From contig NC_089979.1 of assembly GCF_036417845.1 (NCBI RefSeq), positions 30,004,958 through 30,068,957 on the forward strand: a stretch of DNA of 64,000 nt. The letters are read 5' to 3'. Positions 11,217-64,000 of this stretch are shown here, in pieces (position 1 is the first letter of the stretch; every line of letters starts with the position of its first letter). Below the pieces are notes generated by a model that saw only the letters and a program-made list of their open reading frames with translations, did no database searches and was not told the DNA's origin. A program made the translations under genes and the position numbers. The stretch comes from Apteryx mantelli (Eukaryota; Chordata; Aves; Apterygiformes; Apterygidae).

Positions 11217-11367
11217 CAGCAGCAACAGCAGCAACAGCAGCAACAGCAGCAACAGCAGCAACAGCAGCAACAGCAGCAACAGCAGCAACAGCAGCAACAG
11301 CAGCAACAGCAGCAACAGCAGCAACAGCAGCAACAGCAGCAACAGCAGCAACAGCAGCAACAGCAAC
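11217..11367. repeat. Near-perfect 9-bp minisatellite (CAGCAGCAA)n, about 17 units
   Basis: The 9-base unit CAGCAGCAA repeats without visible mismatch for about 151 bases; only the last unit is clipped. All three plus-strand frames stay open: one reads Gln only, one Ser-Ser-Asn, one Ala-Ala-Thr. The minus strand reads mostly Leu. This creates spurious long reading frames on both strands. The flanks show no codon structure, splice pattern or homology, so I treat the tract as non-coding. The period is a compound of CAG and CAA triplets, as in glutamine-coding repeats, but no host gene is visible. Confidence 0.9.
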
Positions 11368-18585: not shown

Positions 18586-20899
18586 CACACATCATAACTC
18601 TTATCCCCAGCTGGTGTGCCAGTGGCCTGCAAGTCCTCAAAGTAATCAGGCAGTGTGTTTTTCTTAAAATTTCTATTTGGGGTAGGTATCTGTAGTGCCT
18701 GGAACAAATTGTCTAGAGTCTTCATGGGATCTGCCACGTCCATCTAATCTTCATCAGTGACCAGTACTAGGTGGTGTTGGCTGTTGTGGGACATTCAGAT
18801 CCTCACACTGAATCTCTCCTTGATCTTAAATAATTATGGAAATAATTAGCTAGGAGTTCCACATTCATATTCCAGGAAAATGTGCTGGAAAGTTATTTTC
18901 TGCATAAGAGAAAACAGATGAAATTGGGGGTGTTCCAAAGAGCAAGGCCAGAAACCCACACCAGAATCCTGAAAGCATTCTGTGTCGCAGGATGACTACA
19001 TCATATCCTGATGGGCAGGAGCTGGGTAAGTTCAATGGATGGTACAACAAGATTATATTCGTTGCTAGTCCTTATGTAATGTGGGGCCAAAAATGCCACG
19101 GGCAGATCTGGTGGCAGCTGAAGCATAGGACTAACCAGGTTTTCCTGTTAGCCACAGTTGACCTTAGTTTCTTGTAAAATAAATGTGGGTTTTTTTCCTA
19201 TATTTGTAGACATTTACTTATGTAACTGACTGTCCCATTGGCATAACTTGAGGTTCCATTTTCTTACAGACTTCCACTTCACTCATGCAGTGCTAATAGG
19301 ATCAAAGTCTCCTATCCATACATTTTGCAGTATTCAAGAATAAGATGGCATATGTCATGGAAGATTTTGTGGTTTAGAGTCTTCTGTGATACCTCTTTCA
19401 TTTGGTATTTTACACTGTTTCAAATGCTAAAAAGAGCTTTTAAATGGAAACCAAAAGAGTGGGATCTATCTACATTGCTTCTACTGTTAAAATGTATTGA
19501 TGAAATTGTTATTTTATTCTTATCATCCTTTTCTGTTGCATGCCCTGATGTTCCATGAGAACATTACTGGGACAATCTTTCATGTACTTGAATGATTCTA
19601 CCATAGTTTCACCAGCTGAGGATCTATCTCTGCCAAGTGCAGCAAATGATGAGACATCTGATGATTTTCAGATATGGCTAAGTAGACTGTAATAAATGAC
19701 AGCCCATTACTCAAGATAAAGAAGTGATAATGTATACCCAGCCCATTGAAGGACCATCATGATCTTAAAGTTAGGGGGCTGAATTACCACATCTTGCCTT
19801 TCCTTCTCTGCCCCAGCCACACATATAGCATAAAAGATATCAATGATGTCAGACAAGGACTGGCAGATGTCCCTGGGGTAAATATTTTAGTGACTGCTCA
19901 GGTAAATAGTTTGAATTATTTAGGTGGTCACAGGTAGGTGGCATGCGAGTAAACAAAAGCCCACTTTATCATAGAGAAATAGACATTCTTCATGCAGAAT
20001 AAGTATAATAAACACACTTTTCCAGATTAAATGCCAATAAGAATTCTGGAGTAAAAACAACAAGTTACAGGATTATTTTGCTAATATAAACATAAACAAT
20101 TTTTTTTGTTTTGTTTTATTGTATGGATAAAACTTCCTCTTGATACTTAAGATTAGGTTTCACAGCTTTCTAATTCTTTCTTTAGCAAACTCAAATGATT
20201 GAAATAGCCTGAATATACATATTTACCAGTCCATAGTTCTCTCTTATACCCTTATTGGTCTTAAAAGCTCTACGCCATCAAATTTAGGCTATCACCTCCT
20301 CTCAGGAGAAACTTCTGGGACTACAGAAATAATTACAATTATACAGTGCTACTAGCCAGAGCATAGATTGATTATTTAAGTAGCCAATGCTCTTTAAGTT
20401 CTCAGACTCCTAATTTCATTCTTCAGCTACAAATTTTATGAGACTTGCACCTATGAAGGTAGGGTGAAGTGAGACTTACTGGTTCCTTGGACATCAGGGA
20501 TTGCATACACCCACATTCTCTGCAAGTACACAGAAAGAAGACTGGTATCACTGTCATGGGCAGTCATTTAAAATGTGTTAATACTATGTTCAATATTTGT
20601 TTGTATATAGAGATATTATTGTTTAAAGGACACAATGTAATGCTGTTCTAAGTGGAATGAAAGGACCTACAGCTACTTACTCATCCACTCTGAGTACGAA
20701 ATATCTTTCCCAGTGGAACAAAATACCCTTCTTATCACAGAATAGGTTTGTCTATTTACAACAAATTGTGCACTGAGTCATTTGACATGGATCACTCGGT
20801 GCTCATTTTTTCCTTGATTGGAATAATAATGGGAAAAGCTGCTAAAACATGCAGTTGTGAAACTTCAGATTTTCAGGTACTCCAAAATAAAGTTAGAAA

Positions 20900-28760: not shown

Positions 28761-28844
28761 GAAACCTTGCAGCTAAGGAAAGCCTGGCTGAAAGGAGGCT
28801 CCTTCTTGTTTAAAAGCATCCTTTCCTCAGCATTTCCCCACCTC

Positions 28845-29600
28845 AGGCTAGCAAGGCGCCGTGGCCAGCGGCACTGGCTTCCCAGGCCTGGCCAGTGCCG
28901 CAGTGCCTGCAGGAGGCCGCGGTGCTCACAGGAGGCTGCACCCCACCGCCAACTGCCAACTGCCGCCACCAGCCCGCACCACCTCTCACAGGACATGGCG
29001 CTGCCCTGGCTGGCCGCGCCCTGGCTGTGGCTCTGCTGGCTGGGCAGCGGTGGCTGCTTGCGCTGCGGCGACGAGCGGCTGGTGTATTCAATCACGTTCG
29101 CCAAGGACGCGAAGGCGGCGAGATGCACCCAGGTGAGCTACAACCGCACCAAGCCCATCCTCCTGCAGCACCCCTGTAGCCAGTACCACTTCTGGGGCAA
29201 ACAAAAGATATCTGTGTACCTGGGGAAGGACGTTTTCATCAGCATGACTACTTTCGAGTCCAGCCTCTCCCCGCTCTCCATCCCAGAAGAACTTGAGGCC
29301 AAAGAAGCGGTCGTCAGCGCCATTGCCTTCGTGCACACGGACAGAGTTTCGATGGTGATTAACGGCCGGGTCTACCTGTACTTCAAGAGCCCTGACAGAT
29401 GGGTCCCGTCAGCGGGAGTCAGCTCATCTGTGTCCGAACTCTCAAACGTCCACTGCTGCTATACAGGAGAGGACTCCCAGTGCAAGATGGTCAGCTGGAC
29501 CCTTTTTGCCTACGACACGGGGCACTCGGTCTCTGACAGCCACATCTTCCTTTCGAAGGACGGGGGTTACACGTTCACACGTGTTCAGATCAGTACAGGA
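28845..29600 (+). promoter_or_regulatory. CpG-rich 5' end of the CATSPERD copy
   Basis: G+C and CpG content rise sharply from about 28,845, peak across the start codon and first exonic kilobase, then fall toward the AT-rich second half of the gene. This is the pattern of a CpG-island promoter overlapping the 5' end of a gene. Two plus-strand splice-acceptor-like motifs lie upstream of the start: a pyrimidine tract ending CCTCAG near 28,845 and CTCTCACAG ending at 28,991. Together they leave room for an unseen 5' UTR exon. Confidence 0.5.
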
Positions 29601-31340
29601 GAGCAAGGCGTGCTGCTTGGTGTCTACAATTTCATCTCTTTTGGCCTAACTGGCCTGCTTATCAACAGAACCGAAGAGGATGAGACAGGGAAGGCAGCAG
29701 GGGCTTATTTCAGATACTTCGGTACTGAAAACAACCACATGTCCAGCTATAGCTCTGCAATCTTCCACCTGCTGTCCAAAGGCCCTGCTAAACTTTGGAG
29801 TATCCATAGTCTTGGCTTGAGGGGTTTCATCATTCTCTGGACAACAGACATTTTGCTTATATCCTCCAACAATGGCTTGATTATGGATGAAGTGACTGTC
29901 ATGCCCACAAAGAAGTTTCAAAACACTACCTTCCCTGACAGCGGTTTCTCCCTTGTGACTGTTAGCAGGTCTGAGATTGCAGTCTTGACCCAGGACAGGC
30001 AAATCTTCTATGGCAGCCTTAGCCTGGTCACTACTGTGGTGTATATTGCCACAGACAAGAGCATAGACTTGAACACCACAGTGATGTTGTTTGAAGAAAG
30101 AGGGTGGCTGACCTTACTCAGCCCTGTGATTAGCAATTTTTCTCAATTGTATGATTTCAAGAAATGCAAATTCAACTTGCAGTTAGCAATCTGGAGATCT
30201 CAGCAGTCCTGCGATGTGGAGATCCTTGAAGGAGATTTCCAGAACAAGATCTATTACATTGACATGCATGAGAACCTGACTTTGAATGCCACGTTTGTGC
30301 CCAAGCCAGGCAAAAGGTCCATTCCCCTGGTGACGGTGAGCAACCCCCATGTGCTGGCTTTCAGTGCAAAGATATTAGAGATAGGCTTTACATATGATGG
30401 AAACACCAAATATCTTTTGCACATCGATCTGCAGCAGCAGTATTTCTCCGGCTTTGCCGAGCGTGATTTCTGTGATGGCTTACTTGATGGGGAGATATCT
30501 ACTGTCACTGTGGACATCCCTGACAAAGGCATTGGCTGTGTTGATGTGGCTCCTTTGACTGCACTTGTTGCAGTGTCCTGTCCACCTACAAAGCATATTA
30601 GAATTTTTAAAAATATAACAGCATGTGACAAAGGCCTCATTCAGGAAGCAGTACTGAAGAATAATTTCAGTTACACAATTAGCTATGAAATATATGACCC
30701 ACAGTTTCTTGCCAGGCCGAATATACAGCAAGACAACCTACAGATCAAATATGATTTTAAGAATCTGGGATGTCCTCTTCTGGTATATTACAAAAACCCT
30801 TGGGTGCCAATTCTTGAGTTATGGGAAAATGGTGCATTTCAGAAGCACGTCTCTGCTGAATTTGTTATGTTTGAAATAAATGGAATGCATAACTATGATT
30901 ATCTTTTGACTGCTAGTGATGTTAATTGTTTCTCTCAACCTCAAAATTGGACTGCTTTGCTAAAAGAGCAGGAGTCTCCAGACCCGCATACTGCATGGAC
31001 CAGAAGAAACTATATGAGCTGTAAGAACAGGAATGGACCTGAATTAAAGTGGCCCTCAGTCAAGTATCAAGTTCTTGGTGGAGGCAAAAACAAGATCATT
31101 TTCCCTCCATATAATGGTCTGTATGTTTTCAAAGCCATTATAGTGGATACATTTTACAGTTACTGTGACTTATCCATAACCTTCTCAATTTATGTCTACG
31201 GTGCCTTTCCCAGGAGCTACCTAAATTTTCAGGCCACACTGATAAGCCTTCTGATTTTAATTTTACTTTTGATTTTGACAGGCTACTTCCTACCTCATTT
31301 ATCACTCAAAAAAATTCACCCAAAAGTTAAAGTATTTTGA
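28995..31340 (+). CDS. CATSPERD: CatSper channel accessory subunit delta, intronless copy
   Basis: Encodes a 781-residue single-pass membrane protein close in length to human CATSPERD (TMEM146, 798 residues). In mammals the delta subunit sits in the CatSper calcium channel of the sperm flagellum, and its large ectodomain (beta-propeller, Ig-like and stem regions) caps the pore. Visible features: a hydrophobic signal peptide at residues 1-20, about ten N-glycosylation sequons (for example N50, N224, N427, N540, N651), many ectodomain cysteines and one membrane helix at about 747-768. Conserved delta-subunit motifs include YIDMH at 421-425, VSNPH at 448-452, DGNTKY at 468-473, GCPLLVYY at 592-599 and FSIYVYGAFP at 730-739. 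I chose the ATG at 28,995 because it has a strong Kozak context and starts a signal peptide; the frame stays open upstream to 28,767 but that stretch is Arg-rich. The mammalian gene is split into many exons; this one has no intron, stop or frameshift, which implies retroposition. The cytosolic tail is only about 12 residues. Confidence 0.9.
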   Translation: MALPWLAAPWLWLCWLGSGGCLRCGDERLVYSITFAKDAKAARCTQVSYNRTKPILLQHPCSQYHFWGKQKISVYLGKDVFISMTTFESSLSPLSIPEELEAKEAVVSAIAFVHTDRVSMVINGRVYLYFKSPDRWVPSAGVSSSVSELSNVHCCYTGEDSQCKMVSWTLFAYDTGHSVSDSHIFLSKDGGYTFTRVQISTGEQGVLLGVYNFISFGLTGLLINRTEEDETGKAAGAYFRYFGTENNHMSSYSSAIFHLLSKGPAKLWSIHSLGLRGFIILWTTDILLISSNNGLIMDEVTVMPTKKFQNTTFPDSGFSLVTVSRSEIAVLTQDRQIFYGSLSLVTTVVYIATDKSIDLNTTVMLFEERGWLTLLSPVISNFSQLYDFKKCKFNLQLAIWRSQQSCDVEILEGDFQNKIYYIDMHENLTLNATFVPKPGKRSIPLVTVSNPHVLAFSAKILEIGFTYDGNTKYLLHIDLQQQYFSGFAERDFCDGLLDGEISTVTVDIPDKGIGCVDVAPLTALVAVSCPPTKHIRIFKNITACDKGLIQEAVLKNNFSYTISYEIYDPQFLARPNIQQDNLQIKYDFKNLGCPLLVYYKNPWVPILELWENGAFQKHVSAEFVMFEINGMHNYDYLLTASDVNCFSQPQNWTALLKEQESPDPHTAWTRRNYMSCKNRNGPELKWPSVKYQVLGGGKNKIIFPPYNGLYVFKAIIVDTFYSYCDLSITFSIYVYGAFPRSYLNFQATLISLLILILLLILTGYFLPHLSLKKIHPKVKVF

Positions 31341-32231: not shown

Positions 32232-32237
32232 AATAAA
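32232..32237 (+). terminator. Candidate polyadenylation signal of CATSPERD
   Basis: This is the first AATAAA on the plus strand after the stop codon, about 890 bases downstream. It would give a 3' UTR of about 0.9 kb. No transcript evidence is available here. Confidence 0.4.

Positions 32238-32387: not shown

Positions 32388-32419
<32 letters not shown>
32388..32419 (+). repeat. Poly(A) run of 32 followed by a CA-rich microsatellite
   Basis: Thirty-two consecutive A, then a C/A-rich tract to about 32,441. It lies about 1.05 kb after the CATSPERD stop and about 150 bases after the AATAAA at 32,232. It could be a remnant of the tail left by retroposition, but the distance from the signal is longer than the usual 10-30 bases and I see no clear target-site duplication. 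A simple microsatellite is equally possible. Confidence 0.7.
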
Positions 32420-36336: not shown

Positions 36337-36571
36337 TCAGATATTATTGATAATGATCAGCGCAGGCATGGAGTTCTGCTGGCTTGTTTCAAACAAAGTT
36401 ACTTGGTCTGCTAGCTTGGCAAATACCCGGGGAGTTCCAAGATTATAAACGCCCGTATGAACAAAGCAAGCTTTCAGCTGCAAGCTGTAGACCTCCTGGC
36501 TTTTAAGTTGAAGCTTGTACTGCGTTTGCCCAAGCCACGTAAAAGATCCATGTATTTCTAGTGCTTCTGGG
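36337..36571 (-). CDS. TRAPPC8: TRAPPC8 last exon (17 of 17 in window) with stop
   Basis: Acceptor TTTCTCTTTCAG. The exon reads PEALEIHGSFTWLGQTQYKL through GVYNLGTPRVFAKL to NSMPALIIINNI and a TGA at 36,337-36,339. It completes a split serine codon (AG|C). Very close to the human C-terminus. Confidence 0.97.
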
Positions 36572-39500
36572 CTGAAAGAGAAAGTAGAGTTTATTTCTCT
36601 TCTTTTTGAAGCATATATTACTATTTTACATAAATCCCTCAACTTTACAGGCCTCCTAGGATTTCAGGGTGCACTCTGTATCTGTGTTCTCTCCCTTACA
36701 AAGGAGGTGCTCATCTATGCTTGTTGCAAATCCTTTGTCAAAAGTCAGGAATTGGAAATGCAAGTTACTATTTTGGCAGTCTTCAAATGTGAAAGTTCTC
36801 ACTGTCAATTTTCTTTGCACGTCTTGGAAGCTGCAAGTTCTTTTGACTGCCTGCCTATACTAACTTACCCAAGTGCACCATGCTTTGTTTTTTTTTCCCC
36901 CCACACCTTATCTTTAAAAGGCCAAGGTTTTTGCAGCAAGGGAAAGTGAGACTTTCAAGATTAACAATTGCAAGCACAGGTACACACAGAACTGCACTTA
37001 ATACTCACCATGATGCTAAATGTAGCTCCAAAAAAGTCTGTATGTCCTTCATATTCTAGAAACACAGACACAGACACAGCCAGACTTCCTAGTCACCCTT
37101 GGGTATCTTGATGGATTTCCACTTGTACTTATCAGTCCCATTTAACTCCAGATCCTTACTTCTTCCCCAAATACTTCCTACCTTCTTACTTCTATAACTC
37201 GTATGTGACATACTGCTTTACAGCTGCTCCCCCCTGGGCTCAGGTGGATCAATACAAATCTTTAAAACATTTCTTTGGTTCCTAATATACATACATACAC
37301 ACTAAGAAATTATAAATTCCAGTGTATTCCCACCTTTTTATAGAACTGGCACAAATACTAATGGAGCTAGTCACAAGATCCAAATTGTCACAGTCCCAGA
37401 AATTCCTAGATGAGGCATCCTAAGGTCTGCCCTATGAGCTAGAGTTAAATCAAAGCATGTATCATACAGAAATAGTCAACATGGATATACACTGCTTTAG
37501 AGACCTCACATCAATGTTTCTTAGAATTCAAGGCACATGGCTGCCCTATCCTGACAGAGCTTTGCCTTATAACACTGCTGCAGAGTAACCACCTTGCATA
37601 AACACACCAGATTAGTGCATAGCTTCCTCCTTTTAACTTATAAATAAAATAGACTTCCATTTTCTCCATTTCTGAACCCGTGTATTACACTCCGAGCTTT
37701 CAATTTCTATTTGTCTGGACAGACCGCTGGCAAGGAGCAAGTGTTCCCTGTGACTACAGCTATCTCAATGTCTTTCATAACCTGCTTTTTCCCCCACCCC
37801 ACCCCAGGACTATACAGTCAGGGTTGCCACCAAGTCTATTATGTGGTACCAGTGCAACTAGCATTATATCTGACAATAGACTTCCCCCTCCCCCCACCCT
37901 CATCAGAATTATACATGAGTCAAATTCCCTTGTTTTAACAGAAGTGGAAGAATTATGTGGTAATGCTATCTTTCCCACAGAAAGCCTTAGCAAAACTTTT
38001 AGAAACAATTCACAAAACATTTCTGCATTGCTGGTATTTTCTCAAGTAATACTACAGTTCCAAACAAAAATCCACAGTCATAAGAATCAGCTGATAAACC
38101 TAGGGGAAATTTTAAAAATATTTAAGGTTCTGTGACATTATGTGACATACCAAACTACACTTCAGGAAACAGTACTTAAGTTTAAACTTGAAAAGCTCAT
38201 TTCTACAAATTCTTTGATATTTTAAAATGAAAAAACACATGTTTAAAAATGTAGGTTTGCTGAAGCTAGTACTTTGCAGGTCTTTTTCTGGAAAAATATG
38301 GAAGTATTTTTAACTGGCAAAGTTAAACTGAACTCTTCAGAAGTTACAATTCAAGGTTCTTTCTTAACAGTAGTCAGAAAGACAGCAAAAACTGAACAGT
38401 GACTGAAGACTCCCATACGAAGCTTTTATCACCTTGTGTTCTTCTATAGAAACCACTTTGGGGGGGGGGGGGGGGGGAACGACACTTATTCTAGATATTT
38501 AGCACATTTAAAACATTTTAAGACTTCCTAAAATCCAGAAGCATTCTCAGAAAGTATTAACTAACGTGCACACATTACCTTGTTGTTTTATGCCGCAAAT
38601 CAATCATCACATCTACAACAGCTTGGGAACAATTGGAAAGTAGGAGAGTGACAGGTACTAGACAGAGGCTGCAAAGAGAAATAGTTTAGTAGCTAAGGAG
38701 AAAAAAAAGCTTTACTCTGAATAGTCTCAACTACAGTCTTAAATAGATTTTTAAAAATTCAACTCATGCAAAATTAACATGTAGTTGTCTATTATACAAC
38801 AGTCTGAGACAGCGTACATTGCAATATAGCCACTTAAATTCACTAATTATTTATATCAAAGCTATAAATTGAGGCAAACACTAAGCCACAGCTGAGTTAC
38901 CACCTTCCTTTGTCCAACTGAGAGAGATCAGCACGAGTGTAAATACAGGAAAGCTACTGATGTATAACAAGAGAAGTTTCACAATGAGATAGCCTGGTCC
39001 AACATGCAGTTCTTTAAATTTGTTTAGAACATTTTCTTCAAAACATTTTCCCCAGACACTTCTCTTCTGCACTGCCTTCCATAGAGTAATTGCTTGCAAC
39101 TGATGCCGTAAAGTTTTAGCCAGAAAAATGCCCAACAGAAGCCAAGACAGTACATATGCATTTGCTGTAAATTTAAGCCACCACTCTGAATACAGCTAGT
39201 GCAGTCCATTGTGTTGCATACACAGAATTAGTATGACTGTTTTTATAAATAAGATGGCAGCCAGAAGAACCTGAGACTTCTACAGACAGATGTATAAACT
39301 ACTGCAGCCAAAACAGCTCTCTATGTATGAAGTGGTTTGCACCACTGGAATTCCTTGCCTTTGCTTAACAGTTCAGATATCCTAAGCCTGACTTACAAAA
39401 AAAATTTTTTTTTTTTTTTTTTTACACTGGAATTTATAATGAATAAAATATAAAAACTTGGTATGGAAATAATAATGCTTTATAACAAAAATAAGCCACC

Positions 39501-42500
39501 TCATAAAGAAAACCCTCTGTTTTGGCAACTTAATTACATTAACTGAAATTAAAGTAAATGTGAGTGGAACATGATAGAGTTCTCAGACTAAACACCACAA
39601 ACCTAAATGGGTATCTTCTTGCTTAGAGTACAGTTCACTTCCTATCTGGAAGTGAATCAGCACGCTTTGTTCAGTTCATTTGAGTTGTGAAAGAGTCAAG
39701 ATTTTACAGGTTCCAATTAATTCACTCTAGCAGTCTGCTTTCTGACAGGGGTTATTTCTGAGATTCTTCTGGGAGACAAGCTCCAGTGATCTAAACTGTT
39801 ACCACCTTTCCTTACAACACAGATCAGAATCACTCACAGCTAATCTTGATAAGCCAGATACTGTAGATATTATAACAGTTCTTTTAAAACTACCAGGTTA
39901 CTTCCTGTCTAGCTCCTCAGAGTAGTTACACTATTTCCTCCTTTGCCTTCCCCCCCCAAAATAAGTGGAAAGGCAGCAAAATATTTATTTTGCTTTCAGC
40001 AAGTTCAATAACCTTACTAGTTAATATTAAAACTGAACTGCAGTATGACAGCCCGTTTCTTTAAGAGAAACTTTTGTTTCACATATACAACTCAAGCAGT
40101 GAGAGTTTCAAAATTCAGCAACATTTCATCTTTGTCCACCATACAGTTTTATCATCTTCTGCATCATAATTCACATAGCATCTCTCAACAGGATTTATAT
40201 CAAATTAACACTATTTCAATGGTTTCTACAGGAAACATTACACTAACCTTTTTTGATGAAATGAATGACTAAAAGACTCTGGATAATGAAGCCTGGTCTT
40301 GATAAGATTGGAGAGCTGCTCTGGTGTTGGTCTTGCAGGTACTGGGGTGTTTTCTGGTCGAAAAAACCTTAAAAGGGCCGTTTCTGGTAATTCCTAAAAC
40401 AAATTCAGAATGAAGTTTAAAACATTGATATGAGGGTACTGTGCAACACAACACAAGAAATTCAGTCAAAATTAAAATTTTCAATTACTAACTGTAACTC
40501 CAGGACACAAATCTATACCATTATGAAGCTTACAGTTTTTCTCCATGTATTTTGTATTTAAGCGTCCTAGATAAGGAAGTGATATGACTCATCTGTTAGC
40601 TTCTTTTGAGACAAGAGATTTTACAGTCACTTGTGAAACACTATCTGTGCACGTTTCACAAAAGCATGTTCATGTGTGGGGGCTTATTTTTATTTTGATT
40701 AAGAAAAAAAGGGACAGCATTTGAACAGTTCCTAATTCAACAGCTATATCTAAAGAACCGAAGCGCCAACTCTGTAAAGTTCACAATAGGAAAGCCAATA
40801 GCAAGGTTCCCCAAAATGGATCCAACATAAAACAAACAACACACGGAAGTTTATGGGAACATGCTAACAATGACTGAAGAACACGCTAAGGCAGAATAAG
40901 ATCTGTATAGCAAGCTCTCACAGATGTGAAAGTTATCTTCCCTTGTCCCCAGCTGAAAGCCCAAATCAAGCACTGACACTACTTGGTGGGGTATCCCAGC
41001 CCTGTGGGCAGACTCAATCTCTGAAGCAGAAGAAATCAGATGATGCAGAAAGATGCAGTGCCAGTAAGGCAAGTCGGGCTGCATTTGGTCCAGCACCAGA
41101 GTACTACTGTAACTGTCTAACATCATCTAATCTGTTTTGCAAGCAGGATTTACTGAGGAAGTGGCTACCTTTCATCATTTCCTTAGAAATCTATTCTGCA
41201 AAAAGTCCACATTTAGAAGACGAAAAGAAAAAAGAAGAATTTGCAGCAATAAATATAGCAATATCTACTAAGAGGGAGGATTTAGAAACACTAGTATGCC
41301 ATCAGTACAGTGTGACAATGTCTTCTTTTTGTCTAAGGGTGATGAGTTGTGCCTTATAAATTGAAAAGGAACACTATAGGCAGTAAAACCCCACTGAATA
41401 ACAGGCAGCGAGACATGGGCCACAGTGAAGTCAGCAACCATTGTGCAAGCTATGATCACAGTCAATGTTTGCCTGTGCTTGGTATAACAGGAAAACATCA
41501 GAATTTTTATCAAGCTTGCAATCCTTTCCTTTAAAAGGAATGGGAACTCTCTTAAAATGTAATTTGAGGCACAAGAAAGATATTTCACAATAACAGTGAA
41601 ATACATCCAGTAAGTGCTTGAATGAATTTGGTTTCTTCCCTATTCTATGGGCATCTAACCTGATGGAAGTTGACAGCATGAAAAACACTGGTCAGAGATT
41701 AGATATTACCTAATTAACAAACTTAAGTTATAATTTTTCATTTAAATTGATCTGTCCCCTGAAGGTATAATACAACTGATTATTCAATGCCCTTTTTAAC
41801 AACATATCAATATCCTACATGCTGTAGTTTTCCCTAGAGTGAATTACCTGTTCCAAGTCCTCCCAATCAGAATTCCCGAGTATTTTTTTTAAACCCTACA
41901 AAAGACAGATACGAAGGTTTATCTCTACAAATAGACAATAGCATCATGAACACCAGCAGCAACATTTATTGATGAAAAGGCAGAATGTCTTTAATGTTTC
42001 AAACCTTTACTTCTAATATTACATTTCCACTGAAGGACTGGAAAGCAGTAAGATTAACAATTTAACATCACAGAGACACAGACATCTTTATCCGAATCAG
42101 ACTCCTAGAGACTGACCTGAGTTAAGATTTAACTCTAAATTAGGTTGCTCAAAGTCTAGCTATTTGTAACTTTGTATCTGGAACACAGGCTAAAAAAATA
42201 ATAATAAAGTAACATTTAGCACACAATTCTCTTAGGCAATGCTTCAGGAAAAAGTTAAGCATCTCCAAATGATAACCAAAAGATCTGCATATAAATCAGG
42301 GAGCTGCTTAGAGACAGCTAATAAGTAATGCTAAGTTTAAGGATACATTAGACTCCTTCCCTATGCTACAACTTGGGAAATTGAACCAAAGCTACAAAAA
42401 AGACACCCATACTCATTTGGGCACCTGTACCCTCCCCTCAAGAATATACACCAAGCAGGTAACAGCCTCAACTTCTAAGACTTTCACAGTCACTTACAAT

Positions 42501-45500
42501 AGAAACAAAGTAAAACAAAAACAAGAATCAAACAGGTAGGATTTTGTTGCTGAAGGCACTCCTAGAATACCAGTCCAAATAGCGTATTGCCTTTAAGGCA
42601 AAACCAAAGTTCTGACATCTAAGGTCAGCCTGTTGACCTTTACAAAGCCTCCAGAAGTGCTGTGGGCTCCAGCACACAACAAGCACCATATATTCCAGAC
42701 AAGAAGGACAAAACAATGGTTAAGACACCTTAACAGTTTTTTTTTTAAAGGGAATATATTTGAAGGTCTCCATCCATCCACACTGGTAGTGATACAGATG
42801 GACTTGGTTGGAAAGAACCATAAGAGGAGTTAGGAAGAACTGTAGGGGTTTTTGTTTTTTTTCCTACAGCTGTTTAATTTGTACATTTCCATTATTTAAA
42901 AAAAAAAAATAGAGTCAGTAGTGAAAGATGTGGCTCTGTTGCAATTACCTTCCAACAGCTGCAAGGCTGTACAATTAACGTTAGGAAAGTTGTTTCTGCT
43001 TTCAAGAAAGATTTTTGCTGCATGAGTGATTCACATCTACAAACGCCAGTTTCAGATATATACACCTAAAACTAGACATATGCTTACTGCTCCAAGTAAA
43101 ATAATCTTCACAACACCACTTTTTGATTAGTTGCAAAAAAACCCACAATCTTTAGAGTCTGATTTTTGCTACCTTGCTTCAAAGTCATGTATTACCCTTA
43201 CATCGAATTGTTAGAATCACGTTAATTATTCACAACTGTTTTAGATTTCTTATGCAACTGAACTACTGTGCTAATTAAAGTCGAAAAAGTCAAAATTTAT
43301 ACCCAATTCAAAGCATCTCTGCATTATACCATAGATATAATAGATAGGTCTCCCCATAACATATAGATGGAGTTCAAAGAGCAAGTTCTTCCCTTCTATC
43401 AGGTGGATGTAAGTGATATCTTCACATTCAGATATTTTAAAGGATTTTAAGTTGTGGTGGAATATTAGACAACTCTAAGTTTTTCATTTCAGAAACAATC
43501 TGCCCAATAACGTCAATGTCTCTTAGACACATCAGCAAAAATAAACATAGCAATTCAAGTTCAAAGCTGTGTGGAAATTCAGCAGTATTTTCCCCATTAA
43601 TCAACAATTTCAGATAGTCAAAAGATTAGTAACACGGTCAATTAAGTGTGAAGGACCAATATGCATAGCATGGAGAAGAACCAAACAGGAAGCTCCAGAA
43701 CAATCCTAAGGGTACAGAAAGGAAGACAGAGCACTTGAAAGCAACAAAATAAAAACAAGACAAAGATCTGAAGTTTTTCCTTCCTCCCTTTCCCGTTTTA
43801 GAATAGGGAATTTCCGTTTTTTAAAGCCTGGCTTTAAGATGGTTTTCTTGACCATATGACTTGCATATATTCACTCTAGCTCCTAACCCATTGAAACAGC
43901 TGCTCCAGAACAATATTCTACTAAGATAGCAATTAACATTTAAGCATGCATTTTAAGACACAGAAATATTATAGCCCTAGAGTCCAACACTTGATAAAGA
44001 AGTAGGTGCCAGTTTGTCAGCTATTCGAAATATTTTATTCATATGACAATAAGGAAAGCCAATCCTCTAGCTGGTACGGTAATGGGTACATTAATTCATA
44101 CAACAGAGTGAAAACATATACTTCAGCTCTTACGTTCCCCTTAAGAATCTTGCTTTCCTTTCAGTAAGTTGGTTTAAAGAATGCCTTAAATCCATTCCAA
44201 CAATCTATGTTGAATTCAAGTATTTCCCCTCAAACTCCAGACAAAACACTGAACTAGCACAAGATGTCACTTCTAATAACTCATTGTTAGAAAAAATTAC
44301 CTGAACCTTACACCTCTCATGCCGTTCAAGAATTCCTACTTCCAACCAAACTGTTGTAGCCTCACTAAGCTACAACTATACTATATTAAGAAGCAGTGTA
44401 ACCCAAAATGATTAGATTTGTGAAGTTAAACAGCTGGTACCAAGCCACCAGCATCCACACTACGTTTCATGGATTTTACTTTGGACTAGCACTAGTCTGA
44501 TCCACAGGACTGAATCAGCAGCCCAGAGCATATGAGATGCAGTTCTGGAGCACATCTGGATTAACTCTGTCTGGAAGGAATCCAGCTCGTGCATTCCAAG
44601 GCCACTTCACAATGAAAATAAAGGGCTGCACATGGGGACAGTATCTTCAAGAACGTATGCCTAAACTAAAAAAAAAACACTCATAGACACTTGTATCTCA
44701 TTCTAGACTTAAATCAATGCTAACTTTAAACTCACATGCATGAAACAAGTTTCAGATATAAAGACACACTACTCAAAAGCGCTGACATTCAGGAATGACA
44801 GCTCTAATAGACAGCTTTTCATCTTCAACCACAGCACTAAGTGTTTGACAACCAAAGGTATGGCAGATGCACCAACTGCACACTATTTCAGTCCCATCAT
44901 ATTAGAATTTGCTTTTTCTTTGGAAACTTTTCGCTTGAAATCACCAAAATACACAAAATGGGAGACAAAGCTGTAAGAAATTATATGGAAGATGGGCCCA
45001 GACTAGGAATGGAGGTTTAAAGTACTTCAACTTTCTTCTGTCTTTTTCCTAAGTTAAGGCAAAGAGGTCAAAAACTCAAGAGACAGAAGAGTTGTATTTT
45101 GGATGCAGTCACATTCTGACCTTCAGTTAATACAACCCAATTCCTAAGAAGAAACAAGCTTCAAAAGAAGCAAAACAGACCCCTAACAGTGTCACTGTCA
45201 AAGAGAACAGCCCTTAGTTACAAATAATCCAGCTAGCTTTTATTACTCTGAGACAGACTGCTATAGCTAGAACATCTGTTCAGACCTATTCAGTTTACTA
45301 ACTTCTTACATCACCTATTTGTTATATCCTTGCTAGAGACTATAATTTATCACTTTGAAATCTTTCTATTTCTGGTTCAAAGAAAGCTATATTTAGCTTT
45401 GTTGCCCTACTTGTACCAAAGAGCAAATTTTTTTTTTTTACATGTAGAAGTGAGGGAAGAGATAGGAGAATAAATACTTTCCTGACTGTTCAGAGAGCTT

Positions 45501-48500
45501 TACATATTTGAACAAACGTTTTAACTGTGCCAACATTCTTTAAATGTTGCTTGAACTTAAGTTCAAACTCCTAAAAGAAAGGGATGCAAGTACTTCATCA
45601 AATCACCTGAAAAAAGAAAAGCCTACTCTGCCCAGTAATCTATGCTCAAAAAAAGCCTTGGTTAGAATTAAGAGTTCATAATTCTATACTGAACACATGG
45701 TAAAAAAGTAAATGAAGCACATGCATTTAAAGTTCCATATAAAATTTATATAGTTTTTTTGTTGTCATTTTCTTGACAACCAGTGCTTTTGTTATTTCAA
45801 TTTTTATCAAATGCTCTTGCAAGTTATGCTGCTGTGGTGCAGGAGTAATCACATGCTGCTGTCTACTCCACATCCCTGCTGCATCCATTACATCTTCCAC
45901 AATGAGGTGAGCAGAAGAAAGTACCTGTCCTTGCCTTGCAGTTAGTGCAGTCTTAGCTTGGAAACCTTAAGAGGACTTAAGCTGTATTAGCATACCAGCT
46001 TAACACTGCAGAATTACAAAGCTCACTTCTTCAAGCTCTCTTAAGACTACACTTATTGATAGTTCTGGCTTTGAGACTTAAGAAGCTATCACTTGCACTC
46101 TGTCCTATCTTTAGGTTGCATCCGAAATGAGTGAGCACTATGAATGATAATCTACAAGCAGCTGCCGAAATAATGTGAAAAACATGACAGTGTCAAAGAA
46201 GAGCAGTAGAACTGTATTCAACAGGACTGCTTTACTGCAGCTTTATTTCTCTGAGGGGTTCTAGAAGTTTGGATAAATCCAGACTAAATCCTTGAGGGTA
46301 GGCAAAGAAGTAATCTCAGAGATATACAATAATTGGCAAAAGCAACAGAGATCAACCAGTACACAGTTTTTAATCAAAAACTGAACTATCTAAATTTGCT
46401 CAAGGCAGCTATTTGAAGAATTTAGCTAAGATTTTCGTAATTTTTCAGAAGGCGGGGGGGGGGAATCTGTCTTATTCATGTTTTCTCCATGTCTATTCTA
46501 AGACTGTTCTTCTTGGTTGGGGATTACTGTATTGCCAGCCAGAAATACAAAGACGTCTTCACCGGTGACTACAGCATAGAGAAAGTGGAAGCAATTCAAT
46601 TCAAGAGGAAAGAAGTTACTGAAAACAATAAGAGGAGCAAACAGAAGATTAATTATTAAAAAAAAAAAAAAAAGGAGGTAGTGAACCAGACTCTTGCATC
46701 CTAGGTGACACCTTGTTCAGAATCCACACATAGATCCATTTTTCAGGTCTAAGCAGCCCTGCATCACTTAAGAACTCTATAAAGTGTTAGTAAAAAGCAT
46801 GCATCTCCATCTCCCTCTACTGTCTAGTTCACAGAAGACAGCCCAAAACACTATACTATCAGCCCAAAACATTCAGAAACTGTCTAGAGTTTCCAACCCA
46901 GCTGATGACATATAGAGAATAAATAAAGATTTACAAGACAAACTATTTGACTATTCCCTTACAAGTCTGTATCTGGAAGCTAATACTGAAAATGTTAAGT
47001 TAGAAGTATGATTTTTTTTTTCCTGTTTCACTGCTTGTGTGACCTTAATGAAAGGGCAAGATAATTCAACAATAGTAGACAAACCTTAATAGTTGAACTA
47101 CATTTATTTTTTCTACATAGCCTCATTTAATCCCATTTCTGAGGATTCTTTTAATTCTTCACTTCATTTACTCCATATATTTAACTGATGCAAAGTCTCA
47201 GATCACTTAATTTGTTACACCTCACTACCATCTCAAAAGAGTTTGTCTCCTCATGGTATAGAATTCCCATAAAAAAAGCAGTATGTAATGTTTAAAAATA
47301 TATATATTATATATTTATAATATATAATGTAAATAACAAATTATATATATAAAATATATAATAAATTTAAAAATAATAAAAGCATATTATATTTCTCAGT
47401 CTTCAGCAGTCCTGAGATTACAGGCTCTTAAAGTCTAAGCCAAACTTGAGTTTTGGCTACTTTGAGGACATAGGACTTTAGCATTTATTAAAACAACTAG
47501 TACTACTTTTAAAATATCATATTTCTATAGTTTATTCAAAAGATGCAGTTTTGTTTCCAACTAAGGTGCTTCACAACATTCTGGAAATTCATTAGCTACA
47601 CTGAGGAAAGTGAATATGATATACGTTGCATCAACTGTATTAATGTGAAATTGAGATTATAGAGGGTGAATGCTAAAGTGGTAATAAACATTTCTCAAAA
47701 CAATTTGAAGGTACATCTTGGCACTGGTGGCAGGATTAATTTCATTTAGTTTTAGACAACTAAATCAAATGCAGACATCTAGAATTCCAATACAGTCAAC
47801 AAGAAGCACAAATCCCTAGCATGTCTGAAGTTCAGTGATATGTTCACTTTAGGATGCAGGTGTGATTCCTCCAACTCTCCTCTCACTTCCCATGTGCTAG
47901 AACAAGGCCTTGATAAAATCAGGAACAGAAATCCACAACATTTTCTCTCCTCACTTTAGATGTCCACAATATGGACTACTGTTCTGTATACATCTTAAGA
48001 CAAGAAAGAAAATACTGGAGTGGGTAGTTATTAGGGTAATACAGTATAGTATTGGCCACCATAGTTTGAGCCCACATATGTACAGAGCAAGTTTGTGTGC
48101 TTAAGAAAAGTGAAAAAAAGACTCTTCAGAGACAAGAGCTTAGATTTTCTTATTTTTCACTGCCAGTGAACAGCAGCCAGTTTACCTCAAACAATATACC
48201 CCTTTTAGTCTAAGGCCTTTCATAGGACAAACTAAACAGAAAGACTTCTTAATGAAGTGAAATATTTAAAGGCTTATGAAGCAAAGCGAAGTGTACAAAT
48301 TCAGTTCAAAGAAATCCACTCATGTTAAGCATAAAACAGTATTTTACAGCCAATAGTCACATTTGTTTTTATATCGTGTGCTTGCCAAAGTAAGTGTTTA
48401 AGTAATACTTATCGCAAACTTGTATGAGAGCTCATCAAAAGCTATATGAGGTTTGCAATATTGGCAAAACACAAATAAGAGGCTGGCACTGAAGCAAGAG

Positions 48501-51500
48501 GGAACAGGATTGCACTGTTCAGCAAAAGACTGAACAGATGCAAGATTTGGGTTTTATTTTGCCTGTTAGTCTTCTTCACATAAACTGCATCCAGCACACA
48601 TGGTTTTTATACAAACTTTCGTAACAACTATGAAAACTGTACATGTACCAGGAGTCCAGTTTGTTACAGATGCTATTTTCTTTGTGTAATTGAACAAGCT
48701 GTAAAATTTAGAAATGAAGCAGCATGTTATTAGTTGATCTCTTCCAACAGAAGCTTTCAGCATCTTTACTGCTCCAGCAATTCTGCTTTTCTGGTTTTAA
48801 CTTCTTACGAGAAAAGCACTTACTTATAAATTGTACATAATAGTAAAATTTATATTATTCTGATTTTGTAACACTTCAAAGAAAAACCAAAATACCACTA
48901 TTTTACTATTACCAATAACCAATGCTAACTTTGGCTTAATACCATTAATGAGCTTTTCTTCATCTGGTTCTAATCTGAAATACTAGAGAACAGTTTATTC
49001 CAACAGCTGTGTAGTTATACATTACCTGTATATTGCCTTTCTCCTCTTTAGTCCAAGTCTAGCTATTTCCGTACAGATGACTAATCAAATACCACAAGAG
49101 TGCAAAGTAGACAAATTGCATTGTTTAAAAATAACTCAAATCTTATGTTAGATTCTACAAAAGCACCAGAGTTTTTCCACTTATTTATATTTACAAGAAA
49201 GAACAAGTCAAGTCCATTTTGGGAAAAAGGCAATTATAAAGAAAGATTTTGTAATAAATTACCTGCTTCTGAGGAAAGGAAAAAGCCTCCTTCCCAACAG
49301 TGTTAAGAGCAACATGATGCTGGCCCTCCAAAATAAGCTGCTTATTGTCTTCCACAACATATGCCTACAGAATATAACAAGCAAAAATATTAGCAGACCA
49401 AAAACTATCACAAACTTCATAATACAGAATTACCAATTTCCCACTAACTTAAGTGGAAGAGTTTGTACTGTTCAAAACCTAAATGCTGCATGACCTGCAT
49501 ATTTTATGCATATGATTTTAGCTTTGCAAGACAACTTCTGAAGTTGAGACTGCTCACTTCTACTATTTAATATTTTTATCCTGGTAAATGGAACCATACT
49601 CTTCAAAGCACACTGAGTCACTCTTACAATTCTATGATAAAAGCAAGCATTAATGAACTTCACATTCTAAGAGTTCAGAAGAGCTCAAAAAGAACTCATT
49701 TGTAGGAATGCATACATCTAGAATAATGTAATGTCATTTAAGCATACTTATTACAGTAACAGCTATGAAGACCGTCTTGGCTTTTTGATAGCAAATTTAG
49801 TTTGCATGATTTCAGACAAAATTATATCTGCTTAAGTTCTGCATGAGTAAGCTTGAAAGTTCATGATGCCATGTCACATCATGATTTCTACTATTCATAT
49901 TTCATAACCAAGTTACTACAAAGAGTGCAAAAAGGCCACTACCATACATACCTTCCACAATACAACAATGTTCAAATCCACTTCACTACACCTTTGTATT
50001 AGTCTGACTGCCTCATCAAATGATTGTTTCACAGCCCTTTGAGATGTGTGAGTATGAGATTGCACATGCATTCTTTTTAATTCAGAGGATAAGCTTTGGA
50101 AAAAAAAGTCTGCACAAGGACTGGCTGAACTTATTATCTGCAAGAGAAAAAGTGCTTTCAGAACAGGATGCAAATTGATACAAGCTACTCTTTAACAGGA
50201 GAGCTCATTACTGTAGTATTTCAGTTCCATTCTCAAGCAATCCTTTACAGACCTACAAGATGCGGCAAGCTTTAGCTTTTACACTTTTGTTACATAGGTT
50301 AGCTCTATATATAATGAGTCCTGAAAGATAATGTAGGAGAACAGAATCATAAAATACTGGCCTTAAATTATGACTAACAACCTTTCATTAAGGGCTATGA
50401 CTGTTACCAGAGAGCCTGCCCTGATATACCAAGTATAGCTTGGAGGATAGACTCCAGCTCTCTCTAATAACTCACATGCAAATCATTATTACATTTTTAC
50501 TTTATTAGGATTTTACTTACTAATAATCCCCTCAGGTTAGTTAACTAGGAGTATTTAACAAAGTTTGGAATGTACATTTTGCTACCTACTAACAGGAGAG
50601 ATCAGAGTATAGCATATTCCACATAAGCGGCACAACCAGAAACGCTGTGCTGTTTGTCAAGCTTTCATCACTTGTGCTTACATTTTCCAACACCAAATAC
50701 TTGCTGAGAGAAGTGTTTCCTAATGCCTCCCTTTGGAAAACAGTAAGTATAACAGCTCTGCAACAGCATATTCTGGGAATTGTTCTACCAGGAGAACCCT
50801 CCCATCAGGTGAAAGAGCCTGCCTTTGGAGTAACTGTCTAGAAGGGAATTTTCTCTTCCCTCCATTGGAGGGTATTTTCCTAAAAAGAAAGCTGAAGTCC
50901 CTGCAGCTCATCCAAATTTAAAATGCACAGATATCTGCCTCAGATTTTTAGTTCTAAACTCAATTTATATACCTATAAAGTAGAATGGCAGTGGCTTTTA
51001 AAAGCCAGCTACATGGATGGTAAATGTACACTTAGCATAAAACAATTAAGTACTGACACCTAGCTACACCTAAAGACACTACACTAGTGTAGATCTCTGT
51101 CCTGATTTGAATGGCCTTTTTTCCTCAAGTTTTGGAGAAACATTCTCTGTACCAAGATCACTTGCTAAAAGGATTCTTCTTCAGACAATACTTGTGGGCT
51201 TAAATAGATTAAAAGGGCATGGTTCTCTGGAATCTCAACCATTTAAGAAGTTACAGAAGTGGACTTCCTGAAACAATTGCAACCTAAATTAGTGGCTTTC
51301 AAATTCTGATAGCTATATTCATTGGAGGTTTACAGATTATTTTTAGAATGTGTCAGTAAGAAATAATTAAGAAAAGCAGTTGACGAAGAATCTGACCTCC
51401 TCAGATCTCTATTAGGAAACTAGGGGACTGGGAAATACTGAGAACTGCTCTGAAGATTCTGAAAGGAAGGAAAAAAACTAATATCTCAATACACTCCCAT

Positions 51501-54500
51501 GAAAATAGTTCAGCAGTAGAGGCAACTGAAGCTTCCAGATTATCCACTAGACTGTGCTAGCTTGTACTGTATTTATATAAAAAGAGCTGATTTCAAAGAG
51601 AGTTAAAGTGAAAAATCCAACTTCCCCAACCATTAAAGCATTGTTTTAGTCTTTAAATTATAATAAGGCTTTCGCTGGGACACTTGCACATGACAGGTAT
51701 TGATAACAAGATAAAATATGCGGTTGCACCAGTTCACTTACCTGTTCGTTTCCAAAGACAATGTCTGCAAACGTGTAATTTTCTAAGGGATAAAAAGAAA
51801 AAGCTTCTTTTCAGCATCATTGAAAAGTCACAACTTCAGCATGCAGTATCTAAATCTTATTTTCTTCAAAAGTTACCACATTCAGAACCTACCTTCTGAG
51901 TTTTTGCATCTTACTGCTTTAAAGCATAACTTTGCTCTCTCTCTGCTAGCGAGTTTAGCATCTGAAAGAAAAAGGTTGCAGACTTTTTTCTTCAACACAT
52001 CAGCCAAATCAGTATCCAAGTCAGCCTTTGCACTTTGCAAGTCAAACACACTCATGAAACTTAAGCATATATAACTAAGCAGAGCAACTGCAAGAGTAAA
52101 GATGATATTTCTGCTGATCCCATTCATCTAGTTCTAGAACAGTGAGCTGTAATACATAAAGAAGGTAAGAAGAAGGAATGAAGGAACAGAAGACAGAAAA
52201 TTCAGCCTTCAATATTAATGCAAGAGGAAGTCAGTATATTTAGGCTCACGTCACTGACCTTTTACTTACTTGAACATATGGATAACATTGTTTTAGTCCA
52301 TTTGTTAAATACCTTAACAGCACTTCTTCTTCTCCTAAATTTATCTGAGCAAATTAGCCTTTTTGAAAATTAGCAGGTTGTATTAGTTAAAGCAGGACAC
52401 AGCATTTATCAGATATTCTGCTGGATTAGTTAAATTAACATTGATATAAATAACTGAAGGTAAAGGAATGCTGCCACATTTTTCTTGTGAAGCAAATTAT
52501 CTGCCAACTCCGACATGGATTTCTCTACATCAACTAAATAATTTACACATAGATCAGTACCACTATTAAAACTAACGAACTCTGAAAACATTTTTCAATA
52601 TACTTTTCTCCTGAAACAGTAACAAAAGAACTATAGTATGTTTGAAAGGGACAAAATTTTTGCAATTGAATCATTCTTAAAGACAAACTTAGCTCCTCAT
52701 AAGATTCTTTTAAGTATTCTGTCAGGCAGAAGCTGGATTCCCTATACCTTTGATGATTTAAAAGAAAAAAAACCCCACAAACCTTTGTCTTCAGAGATGT
52801 TAACAGATTTTTGAAGCTTCCAGTGCTTGCTGTTACTTGAAACTTGTACTATATGAAATTCTTTAACACCAGTCTCACTCTAAGGAAGAAACAAAGATGA
52901 TGTCAAACAAGATGAATCACAATTGTAATGTTCTGCATTGCTTAGTAAATGGTTATTGCAAGGTGGCAGTGTTGGAAACTAAGTCTTCTTTCACAATATC
53001 TATATCTGTAATATAGTATTTAAGGAGAGACAAGAGATTAAAAACCCATTGTAAAAACAAACAATCCCAGCCCCCAGCAACTTTCAGTTACAGTAAAGGA
53101 GGATACAATGAGAAGAGGAAACAAAAATCCCAGGGAAAGAAAAATCAGCAAGCTTTTTTTTTTTTTTTTTTTTAAATTAAAGACTCCCATAATCAAACCT
53201 AGGCTTTTGACTCCAGTGCAGAACACTGTCCACAAGGCCACTTAGTCCTCCAAGATGACTTCAGCAACCTTGCTAGATCATTCAGTAGCTGGTTTTCATT
53301 TTTTTATTTTTTCAAAAAGCAATTACATACATACATGATGAAAAGCAGCTTTTGGGTTGCTTTTATTTTTTGCAAACAGTGAAGCAGTAGCGAAGATTTA
53401 ATTTCACAGAATGTTATCAGTTAACTTGATAAGGACTTTATAATACAATCCTCCCTCCTCAAAGGATGCTTGGGCAATATTTGCTTTAACAGCTGAAAAA
53501 CATCAGGATTTACATACCTTTAACACAAAATGACAAATCAGTTCAACGATTCACCTAGTAGGTTAAATGCTTAGGAATTCTATTAAGTAGAGGATTAAAC
53601 TACTTTGCTTTGTGGTTTAAAAAAACTGCAGCAGCTTTACCAAAAGAACAGTCAATTTAAAAAAACTGCAGCAGCTTTACCAAAAGAACAGTCAATTTAA
53701 AATAGTGTGGCGTGAAAAACAAATATTTTCATCTGCTGTGCTAAGCCAACATACCACAACAAACATATCTGTATTTTGATTATACATGCAGGAACCTGTT
53801 CAAGAGTTTGGCTAGTAAATTTACACAAGGATGCTTCCTTCAAGTTTGAGTAAAAATTTTGACTTCAAGGTCATCATTAATTCTACCATACTAGTGTTTT
53901 GACTGAAAGAGACGGGGGGGGAAGGCGTTCAGAACCATCACAAAAGTTGTTAGCATCAAGAATGCATATGAATTTGGAATAAGTCATCCTACAGGAGGCG
54001 AGGGAAAAGAGACTCAGAGTCACAGTACTGCAATATGTGGAGAGAGTGTTACAGCAAGTTTCTGCAGTGAATTTTGACCAATAACTTACTGCTGGAAAGA
54101 AAGCATTAACATTAACTGGAATGATTAAATATGCGAGGTTTACTTAATGTTTCCAGTCAAAGTGGTTTTAAGAAAGCTTTTACTTCAATATTGGCTCTAC
54201 TGATGACATTTATATGTCTGCTGAACTTAAGAACAATATAGTTATTTTTAATATGAACTTACAGTATTGATATTTTCTACATCCACAAACACCAACATAT
54301 TATCCCCTTTGCCGCCTTCATCTTCAAGTGCGTTACTTCTGCAGATAGTAGCTCGAATATGCAGAGACCGGCTAGTACAAATAACTGCAGTGTGCCTTAA
54401 TACTCTATGACTAAGGAGGAGGAGAAGGGGCGGAGGGGGGCAGGGGAGAAAGAAGGAAGAAAAAAAAAAAGATATTCTTCAGAACCAGGACTGCCATCTG

Positions 54501-63395: not shown

Positions 63396-64000
63396 CTGCA
63401 AGAACAACAAGATTAGTTCTCAAATAGTCTCATTAACCACTCAATGCAGTTTTAGTACTAGGAAGACTAAACAGTAAGTCAGAAAAGTTACTGTACTTAA
63501 AAAAAAAAAAAAAAACACAAGACAAACTTTCCCCTCTCCCACACCAAGTGTAATATTTGCAGAATTGTACCTCGTAATATCTGGTCCACATTAATCTAAG
63601 GGCAGAAGAACTGTTTGCTCCTGTAGTACAGTGTCTAGTGTTCTGATTAAGTTCATGTTTTCAAAGACTAGTGTAGCAGGCAGTATGTTAACCAAAGAAA
63701 AGGATGAGAAGCCGCTTGTTAAAGTGTTCTGCGTTGCTTTAGAACTGAGAGCTAGAGCCCGCAGAACTCCGCTGCCAAGCCAGGACACACATGTCACCTC
63801 ACTTCAGTAACAGAGCTTTCACTGTGACAACTCCATTCAAGTGTTCTTCAGTAAGAAACATTTAGTACAAGATCCATGCCAAGCAAACCCCAACGCTCAT
63901 GGCTCTATAGTACATGAAACAAAATTACCAGTCACATCAGCCATTGGGAGATAGATGCTCTGCTCCCAATCAGCTCCTCAGTTTCCTTTCCTGTACATAC
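63396..64000 (-). other. TRAPPC8 intron running off the window
   Basis: No further exon was recognised up to the right edge. The preceding coding sequence (the segment before the KKHALRC exon in human) must lie beyond 64,000. Confidence 0.7.

What the first reader, a model, noticed from the sequence alone, without database searches (positions are those of the whole stretch)
28995..31340. Intact, intronless CATSPERD gene in what appears to be a bird genome
The frame encodes a full-length 781-residue CatSper delta subunit with signal peptide, glycosylation sites, cysteines and membrane helix, and no stop or frameshift. The mammalian gene has many exons, so an unbroken CDS points to an mRNA-derived copy. 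Comparative surveys have reported that birds lack CatSper channel genes. CR1, the main bird retroposon, does not readily copy polyadenylated mRNAs. A preserved delta subunit without introns therefore suggests an old retrogene kept by selection, perhaps after loss of the parent. It may serve a residual CatSper complex or a new function.
Basis: partly seen in the sequence, partly recalled or inferred. Interest (0 to 1): 0.88.

Follow-up and report, generated by a model that had tools for sequence, protein, structure and literature searches.

The report
Intronless kiwi CatSper delta gene
A kiwi carries an intact gene, its coding region in one unbroken piece, for a part of the sperm calcium channel CatSper; it is the bird version of the ordinary reptile gene, sits at a different chromosome site from that of the mammals compared, and is damaged in most of the neognath birds examined.

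Summary
Window 28995-31340 (+) is an unbroken 781-codon CATSPERD frame with all three CATSPERD domains. The organism is a kiwi: the predicted Apteryx mantelli protein differs at 2 of 781 residues. 'Birds lack CatSper' is out of date: papers report CatSper in Apteryx and Tinamus and loss in neognaths. The gene is not a bird oddity. It is the orthologue of the crocodile, turtle and squamate gene and lies beside TRAPPC8; the two genes share a contig in 11 of 11 sauropsid species with data for both, against 0 of 3 mammals. I read it as an old retrogene that moved there before the crown sauropsid split, whose parent is no longer found. It probably still works as a CatSper subunit in palaeognaths and is decaying in most neognath models (the condor Gymnogyps is nearly intact). 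Constraint is supported only indirectly. Single-exon structure outside kiwi is inferred from annotation labels, with one snake and one turtle model against it; I had no other sauropsid DNA, and the own-genome search did not complete. Interest moderate.

The parts
28995..31340 (+). CATSPERD coding sequence, 781 codons, no intron
29130..30167 (+). beta-propeller domain (residues 46-391)
   Evidence: PF15020
30216..30575 (+). Ig-like domain (residues 408-527)
   Evidence: PF23747
30663..31304 (+). CATSPERD/E C-terminal domain (residues 557-770)
   Evidence: PF22850
31227..31307 (+). predicted membrane helix (residues 745-771)
   Evidence: hydropathy, model
28801..29600 (+). CpG-rich 5' end (CpG-island windows of 300 bases start at 28801-29301), possible promoter
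   Evidence: promoter role inferred
18992..19025 (+). counterpart of the start of the ostrich CATSPERD gene model, followed by a GTAAGT splice-donor-like site; about 10 kb upstream of the ORF
   Evidence: 9 of 9 residues, E=0.002; use in kiwi not shown
32232..32237 (+). first AATAAA downstream of the stop codon, candidate polyadenylation signal
   Evidence: role inferred
36340..63398 (-). neighbour gene TRAPPC8: 17 tblastn pieces (C-terminal part of the protein), convergent with CATSPERD, its end 5 kb away
   Evidence: tblastn with P0059; PF24544

Best explanation
This is the kiwi CATSPERD gene, orthologue of the sauropsid CATSPERD. SHOWN: the intact one-piece CDS in kiwi and its position tail to tail with TRAPPC8; shared contigs with TRAPPC8 in 11 sauropsid species; one gene lineage in birds, crocodile and turtles. 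SUPPORTED INDIRECTLY: constraint in palaeognaths, damage in most neognath models. INFERRED: the gene arose by reverse transcription of a spliced CATSPERD mRNA that inserted beside TRAPPC8 before the crown sauropsid split; it took over from the multi-exon parent, which is no longer found; it acquired a CpG-rich promoter and, in ostrich, perhaps an upstream 5' exon. The protein works as in mammals: a single-pass, glycosylated delta subunit whose extracellular beta-propeller and Ig domains are part of the CatSper Ca2+ channel of the sperm tail. It went down with the rest of the complex in neognaths.
For: Domains and PDB match, model. Tree of 42 rows: birds+crocodile+turtles 99*, squamates 100*, squamate duplicates inside squamates. 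No second archelosaur gene in two protein searches (the two Chelonoidis rows are one gene). Ostrich model start maps 10 kb upstream of the kiwi ORF, so probably the same locus. Mammal and frog isoforms lack pieces matching kiwi residues 165-202, 294-323 and about 303-323, where the kiwi ORF runs through. 'Isoform' in the name: 1 of 36 named sauropsid rows against 5 of 7 mammal and frog rows (counted by hand; Fisher p=1.3e-4), while TRAPPC8 in the same 11 species is so labelled in 11 of 11. 13 cysteines kept in 5 of 5 palaeognath, 22 of 22 reptile and 4 of 4 mammal rows used; each of 7 neognath models has at least one replaced. Neutral simulation: reaching about 80% identity brings about 6.5 stops and no stop-free run in 300.
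Against: No DNA of another sauropsid was available, so single-exon structure outside kiwi rests on labels. A Crotalus row is labelled 'isoform X1', and one of two Chelonoidis models of the same gene omits 27 internal residues and has other ends, either a spurious intron call or real splicing. No target-site duplication (longest flanking repeat 11 nt, reached by 46 of 100 shuffles) and no credible old poly-A tail. Which location, mammalian or sauropsid, is ancestral was not tested. Shared contigs show linkage, not adjacency. The condor Gymnogyps model is in frame over kiwi residues 47-771 with 12 of 13 cysteines, so loss in neognaths is not uniform. The selection test is a simulation on models already chosen for being open. 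Expression untested.
Confidence: 0.6

Rival explanations
1. The TRAPPC8-side locus is an ordinary multi-exon sauropsid (perhaps ancestral amniote) gene; the bird lineage lost all introns in place, by recombination with a reverse-transcribed copy. The mammalian location is then the moved one.
For: Shared linkage in all 11 sauropsids tested fits a gene that never moved in sauropsids; the Crotalus 'isoform X1' label and the Chelonoidis model lacking 27 internal residues hint at splicing; no retroposition scars.
Against: Only 1 of 26 named non-avian sauropsid rows carries an isoform label (counted; test), although TRAPPC8 does in 11 of 11 of the tested species. Loss of every intron in place is rarer than retroposition (recalled).
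Confidence: 0.24
2. A bird-specific retrogene whose multi-exon parent still exists or was lost within birds.
For: Intronless CDS in a bird.
Against: Linkage with TRAPPC8 also in crocodile, turtles and squamates; no second archelosaur copy in the protein searches; one gene lineage in the tree. The own-genome search that could show a parent did not complete.
Confidence: 0.08
3. The ORF is kept for a function other than CatSper.
For: CatSper is reduced in other birds; Struthio, whose CATSPERD model is 89% identical to kiwi, is reported to keep only three intact alpha subunits (PMC6660944, passage).
Against: All domains and 13 cysteines kept; CatSper is reported conserved in Apteryx and Tinamus; most neognath models, from a group reported to have lost the complex, are damaged.
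Confidence: 0.06

Closest known systems
CATSPERD (TMEM146), delta subunit of the CatSper channel, PDB 7EEB chain G and 9UBW chain G
   Same: Length, three extracellular domains, C-terminal membrane helix, 13 cysteines
   Different: CDS in one piece; mammal and frog isoforms indicate spliced genes; on the TRAPPC8 contig in 11 of 11 sauropsids but not in 3 of 3 mammals
Group I testicular ADAM genes of amniotes (PMC4550289; abstract read)
   Same: Intronless testis genes put down to retroposition, followed by tandem duplication
   Different: There ADAM9 itself survives in amniotes; here no parent is found and the copy is the only CATSPERD seen in archelosaurs
STK33 in birds (PMC4509753; abstract read)
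   Same: Gene with a possible role in spermatogenesis, intact in palaeognaths and a pseudogene in neognaths
   Different: STK33 has many exons; CATSPERD damage was seen here only in 7 neognath protein models, one of them nearly intact

Membership tests
CATSPERD | Beta-propeller, Ig-like and CATSPERD/E C-terminal domains in order | tested here: met
CATSPERD | Closer to delta than to epsilon | tested here: met
   1e-141 over residues 69-765 against 1e-26, C-terminal domain only
CATSPERD | Single C-terminal membrane helix | tested here: met
CATSPERD | Expressed in testis, part of the CatSper complex | not testable with these tools
   no expression or biochemical data
Retrogene | CDS without introns where relatives have them | tested here: met
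   kiwi CDS; mammal and frog isoform differences
Retrogene | Different location from the parent | tested here: inconclusive
   not on the TRAPPC8 contig in 3 of 3 mammals, but the ancestral location is unknown
Retrogene | Target-site duplication and poly-A tail | tested here: not met
   at this age they would be erased, so weak evidence either way
Retrogene | A multi-exon parent, in the same genome or in close relatives | tested here: inconclusive
   none in protein searches (one search scored only the 8000 best candidates); own-genome search did not complete
Functional gene under selection | dN/dS well below 1 | not testable with these tools
   no orthologous DNA; indirect simulation only

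The most novel reading that the evidence does not exclude
Living sauropsids that keep CatSper run it on a retrogene: before the crown sauropsid split a processed CATSPERD copy landed beside TRAPPC8, replaced and outlived the parental gene of an obligatory sperm-channel subunit, was later tandemly duplicated in squamates and dismantled in most neognath birds.
Probability: 0.5. Interest if true: 0.6.

Novelty: new variant of a known kind. Interest (0 to 1): 0.45.

Why it matters
The delta subunit is indispensable for CatSper and male fertility in mice (PMC6660944, passage). Replacement of such a gene by its own processed copy in a whole amniote lineage would be a rare, old orphan retrogene. It would also explain why earlier work marks the zebra finch CATSPERD location as 'synteny traced through phylogenetic relationships' (PMC6679542, passage). 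Palaeognath birds, and perhaps condors, become a natural test of what CatSper does in avian sperm and why most neognaths lost it.

Tried and rejected
Contamination: rejected, since avian-like TRAPPC8 exons flank it and the protein groups with palaeognaths. Position inside a TRAPPC8 intron: rejected, the gene lies about 5 kb beyond the last TRAPPC8 exon. The 32-base A tract at 32388-32419 as the retrocopy tail: not believed, because it is perfectly uniform and no flanking repeat exceeds chance. Logan contig P0026 (783 aa, 4.1 kb) as proof of a single-exon lizard gene: rejected, because TRAPPC8, spread over at least 27 kb here, also appears nearly full-length in 5.5-kb Logan contigs, so such contigs can be mRNA. 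P0036 (504 aa, 11.9-kb contig) is more likely genomic but not proven. Two turtle copies in Chelonoidis: rejected, the two rows are models of one gene. Rfam gave nothing at gathering scores. N-terminal extensions of the crocodile and Pelodiscus models have no significant counterpart in the window. Fold comparison with the PDB was not run. After rechecking I lowered the best explanation from 0.62 to 0.60 and the novel case from 0.55 to 0.50, because of the Chelonoidis model.

Full report
What is there. Window 28995-31340 on the + strand is an ATG-to-stop frame of 781 codons with a single stop at its end; the longest stop-free run in 30 shuffles of the window was 188 codons. All three CATSPERD Pfam domains are present in order and far above cut-off. 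By sequence the best solved structures are chains named CatSper subunit delta (7eeb_G, 9ubw_G, E about 1e-141); epsilon is matched only in the C-terminal domain. The AlphaFold model has mean pLDDT 81.8, mostly strands followed by one helix at 745-771. A comparison of this model with the PDB could not be run.

Which organism. The nearest database protein is the predicted Apteryx mantelli CATSPERD; the window protein differs from it at 2 of 781 residues, positions 80 and 490. Rhea is 90%, ostrich 89%, the two tinamous 80% identical. The neighbour gene, TRAPPC8, has birds as its two best matches at 96 and 95% over a stitched query. The window is from a kiwi, and contamination is not a reasonable explanation.

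Neighbourhood. Seventeen TRAPPC8 pieces lie on the - strand from 63398 down to 36340 (tblastn with P0059). CATSPERD therefore lies about 5 kb beyond the end of the TRAPPC8 coding region, tail to tail, not in an intron. No other gene was recognised by eye in the six-frame ORF list from 1 to 28 kb. The 5' end of the CDS is CpG-rich and GC3 falls from 0.88 to 0.38 along the gene.

Is it known that birds have CatSper? Cai and Clapham 2008 (PMC2572835; passages) reported loss in birds, from chicken and zebra finch. Romero and Nishigaki 2019 (PMC6660944; passages) report that Apteryx australis and Tinamus guttatus keep CatSper, and that the ostrich keeps three alpha subunits intact. PMC6679542 (passages) reports only fragments of CATSPER3, B, D and E in zebra finch, the same plus CATSPER2 fragments in chicken, and CATSPER1, 4 and G in ratites; it marks CATSPERD as 'synteny traced through phylogenetic relationships'. 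PMC11289002 says birds lack only CATSPER1 (passages), which conflicts with the ratite report. So an intact delta subunit in kiwi is not a surprise. I found nothing in print on its intronless form or history in searches (listings, and passages or abstracts of the papers named here; the library holds open-licence papers only).

Where the gene sits in other species. The protein database gives the length of the contig carrying a protein. I compared CATSPERD rows with TRAPPC8 rows (the best 120 of 729 listed). In Emydura the shared contig is only 14.3 Mb. No bird had a length for both genes in the listed rows. For birds the same-locus evidence is the window itself and ostrich: residues 2-10 of the ostrich model match 9 of 9 at 18998-19024 of the kiwi window, directly before a GTAAGT splice-donor-like site and about 10 kb upstream of the ORF (E=0.002; sequence). 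Shared contigs show linkage, not adjacency, and the lineages are not independent.

Gene tree. A quick maximum-likelihood tree of 41 of the 57 fetched CATSPERD rows plus the window protein (16 rows left out: near-duplicates, short isoforms or poor models) puts birds, crocodile and turtles together (SH-aLRT 99*), squamates together (100*), and all squamate duplicates inside squamates. There is no bootstrap; the program warns of long branches for Ascaphus and Crocodylus, and the crocodile's place within archelosaurs is unsupported (8). No second, older copy appears in an archelosaur in two searches (one search scored only the 8000 candidates sharing most words). Two Chelonoidis rows, which could look like two genes, are models of one gene. 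The bird gene is therefore best read as the orthologue of the reptile gene.

Intron evidence. In kiwi the absence of introns is direct. Elsewhere it is indirect. Set against models of related species, the Bison isoform lacks a piece matching kiwi residues 165-202 and the Tamandua isoform one matching 294-323; the frog Ascaphus isoform, set against a turtle, lacks about 303-323 and carries a 24-residue extra piece. This indicates spliced genes in mammals and frog. Of 57 CATSPERD rows, 43 have a descriptive name; I dropped 14 (6 UniRef-only, 6 'hypothetical', 2 Logan). 'Isoform' appears in 1 of 36 sauropsid rows (Crotalus) and in 5 of 7 mammal and frog rows (counted by hand; Fisher p=1.3e-4; without birds 1 of 26, p=5e-4). 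A test used preliminary numbers (1 of 25). The rows are cluster representatives and not independent. TRAPPC8 in the same 11 sauropsid species carries isoform labels in 11 of 11. This fits a single-exon CDS in most sauropsids but does not prove it. Two results speak against it: the Crotalus label, and an Ensembl-type Chelonoidis model (P0020) that is otherwise identical to P0013 over most of its length but omits 27 internal residues and has other ends, which may be a spurious intron call or real splicing.

Selection and decay. Thirteen cysteines are invariant in 5 of 5 palaeognath, 22 of 22 reptile and 4 of 4 mammal rows used. Each of 7 neognath models has at least one of them replaced; they keep between 5 and 12 of 13, gaps counted as lost. 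The condor Gymnogyps is the least damaged: in frame over kiwi residues 47-771, 12 of 13 cysteines, altered ends only, so it may still be a gene. Its relative Sarcoramphus and the stork Ciconia are labelled low quality. In shorebirds a stretch is read in another frame: Calidris P0015 residues 135-196 and P0036 residues 64-116 match the kiwi DNA in frame +2 (E 1e-15 and 5e-14), a sign of paired frameshifts. Simulated neutral substitution of the kiwi CDS reaches about 90% identity at 0.045 changes per site with 3.3 stops on average (3.7% of runs stop-free), and about 80% at 0.10 with 6.5 stops and no stop-free run in 300. The palaeognath models, at 80-90% identity, are open frames. They were chosen by annotators for being open, so this is supportive, not decisive.

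Explanation. The simplest account that fits location, orthology and intron absence is retroposition of a spliced CATSPERD mRNA beside TRAPPC8 before the crown sauropsid split, followed by loss of the parent. A precedent is the intronless group I testicular ADAM genes of amniotes, put down to retroposition and later tandem duplication (PMC4550289, abstract). The palaeognath-neognath pattern resembles that of STK33 (PMC4509753, abstract). The main rival is loss of all introns in place, in birds only.

Function. The protein most likely works as the delta subunit of a real CatSper channel in kiwi sperm: domains, cysteines, glycosylation sites and membrane helix fit and CatSper is reported conserved in Apteryx. 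Expression and complex formation are not shown.

Noticed in passing
P0057: The tailed frog Ascaphus truei has a near full-length CATSPERD (770 aa, 41% to the turtle protein), although papers report CatSper loss in amphibians.
   Followed up: partly
Several squamates carry two CATSPERD copies, on contigs of the same length in Heteronotia, Eublepharis, Elgaria and Phrynocephalus (the two Lerista copies are on different contigs); the duplications fall inside squamates.
   Followed up: partly
P0006: The California condor CATSPERD model is in frame almost throughout and keeps 12 of 13 conserved cysteines, unlike the other neognath models: possibly a surviving neognath copy.
   Followed up: partly
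P0015 residues 135-196, P0036 residues 64-116: Two shorebird-type CATSPERD models share a stretch of about 50-60 residues read in another frame of the ancestral DNA.
   Followed up: yes
window 18992-19025: Short exon-like stretch with a splice-donor-like site, matching the start of the ostrich gene model; possible alternative 5' exon.
   Followed up: partly
window 11217-11365: Perfect (CAGCAGCAA)n tandem array of 16.6 copies.
   Followed up: no
window 53616-53702: Perfect 40-base tandem duplication between two TRAPPC8 exons.
   Followed up: no
window 14901-15500: CpG-island-like stretch without a recognised gene; possibly the promoter of the next gene.
   Followed up: no
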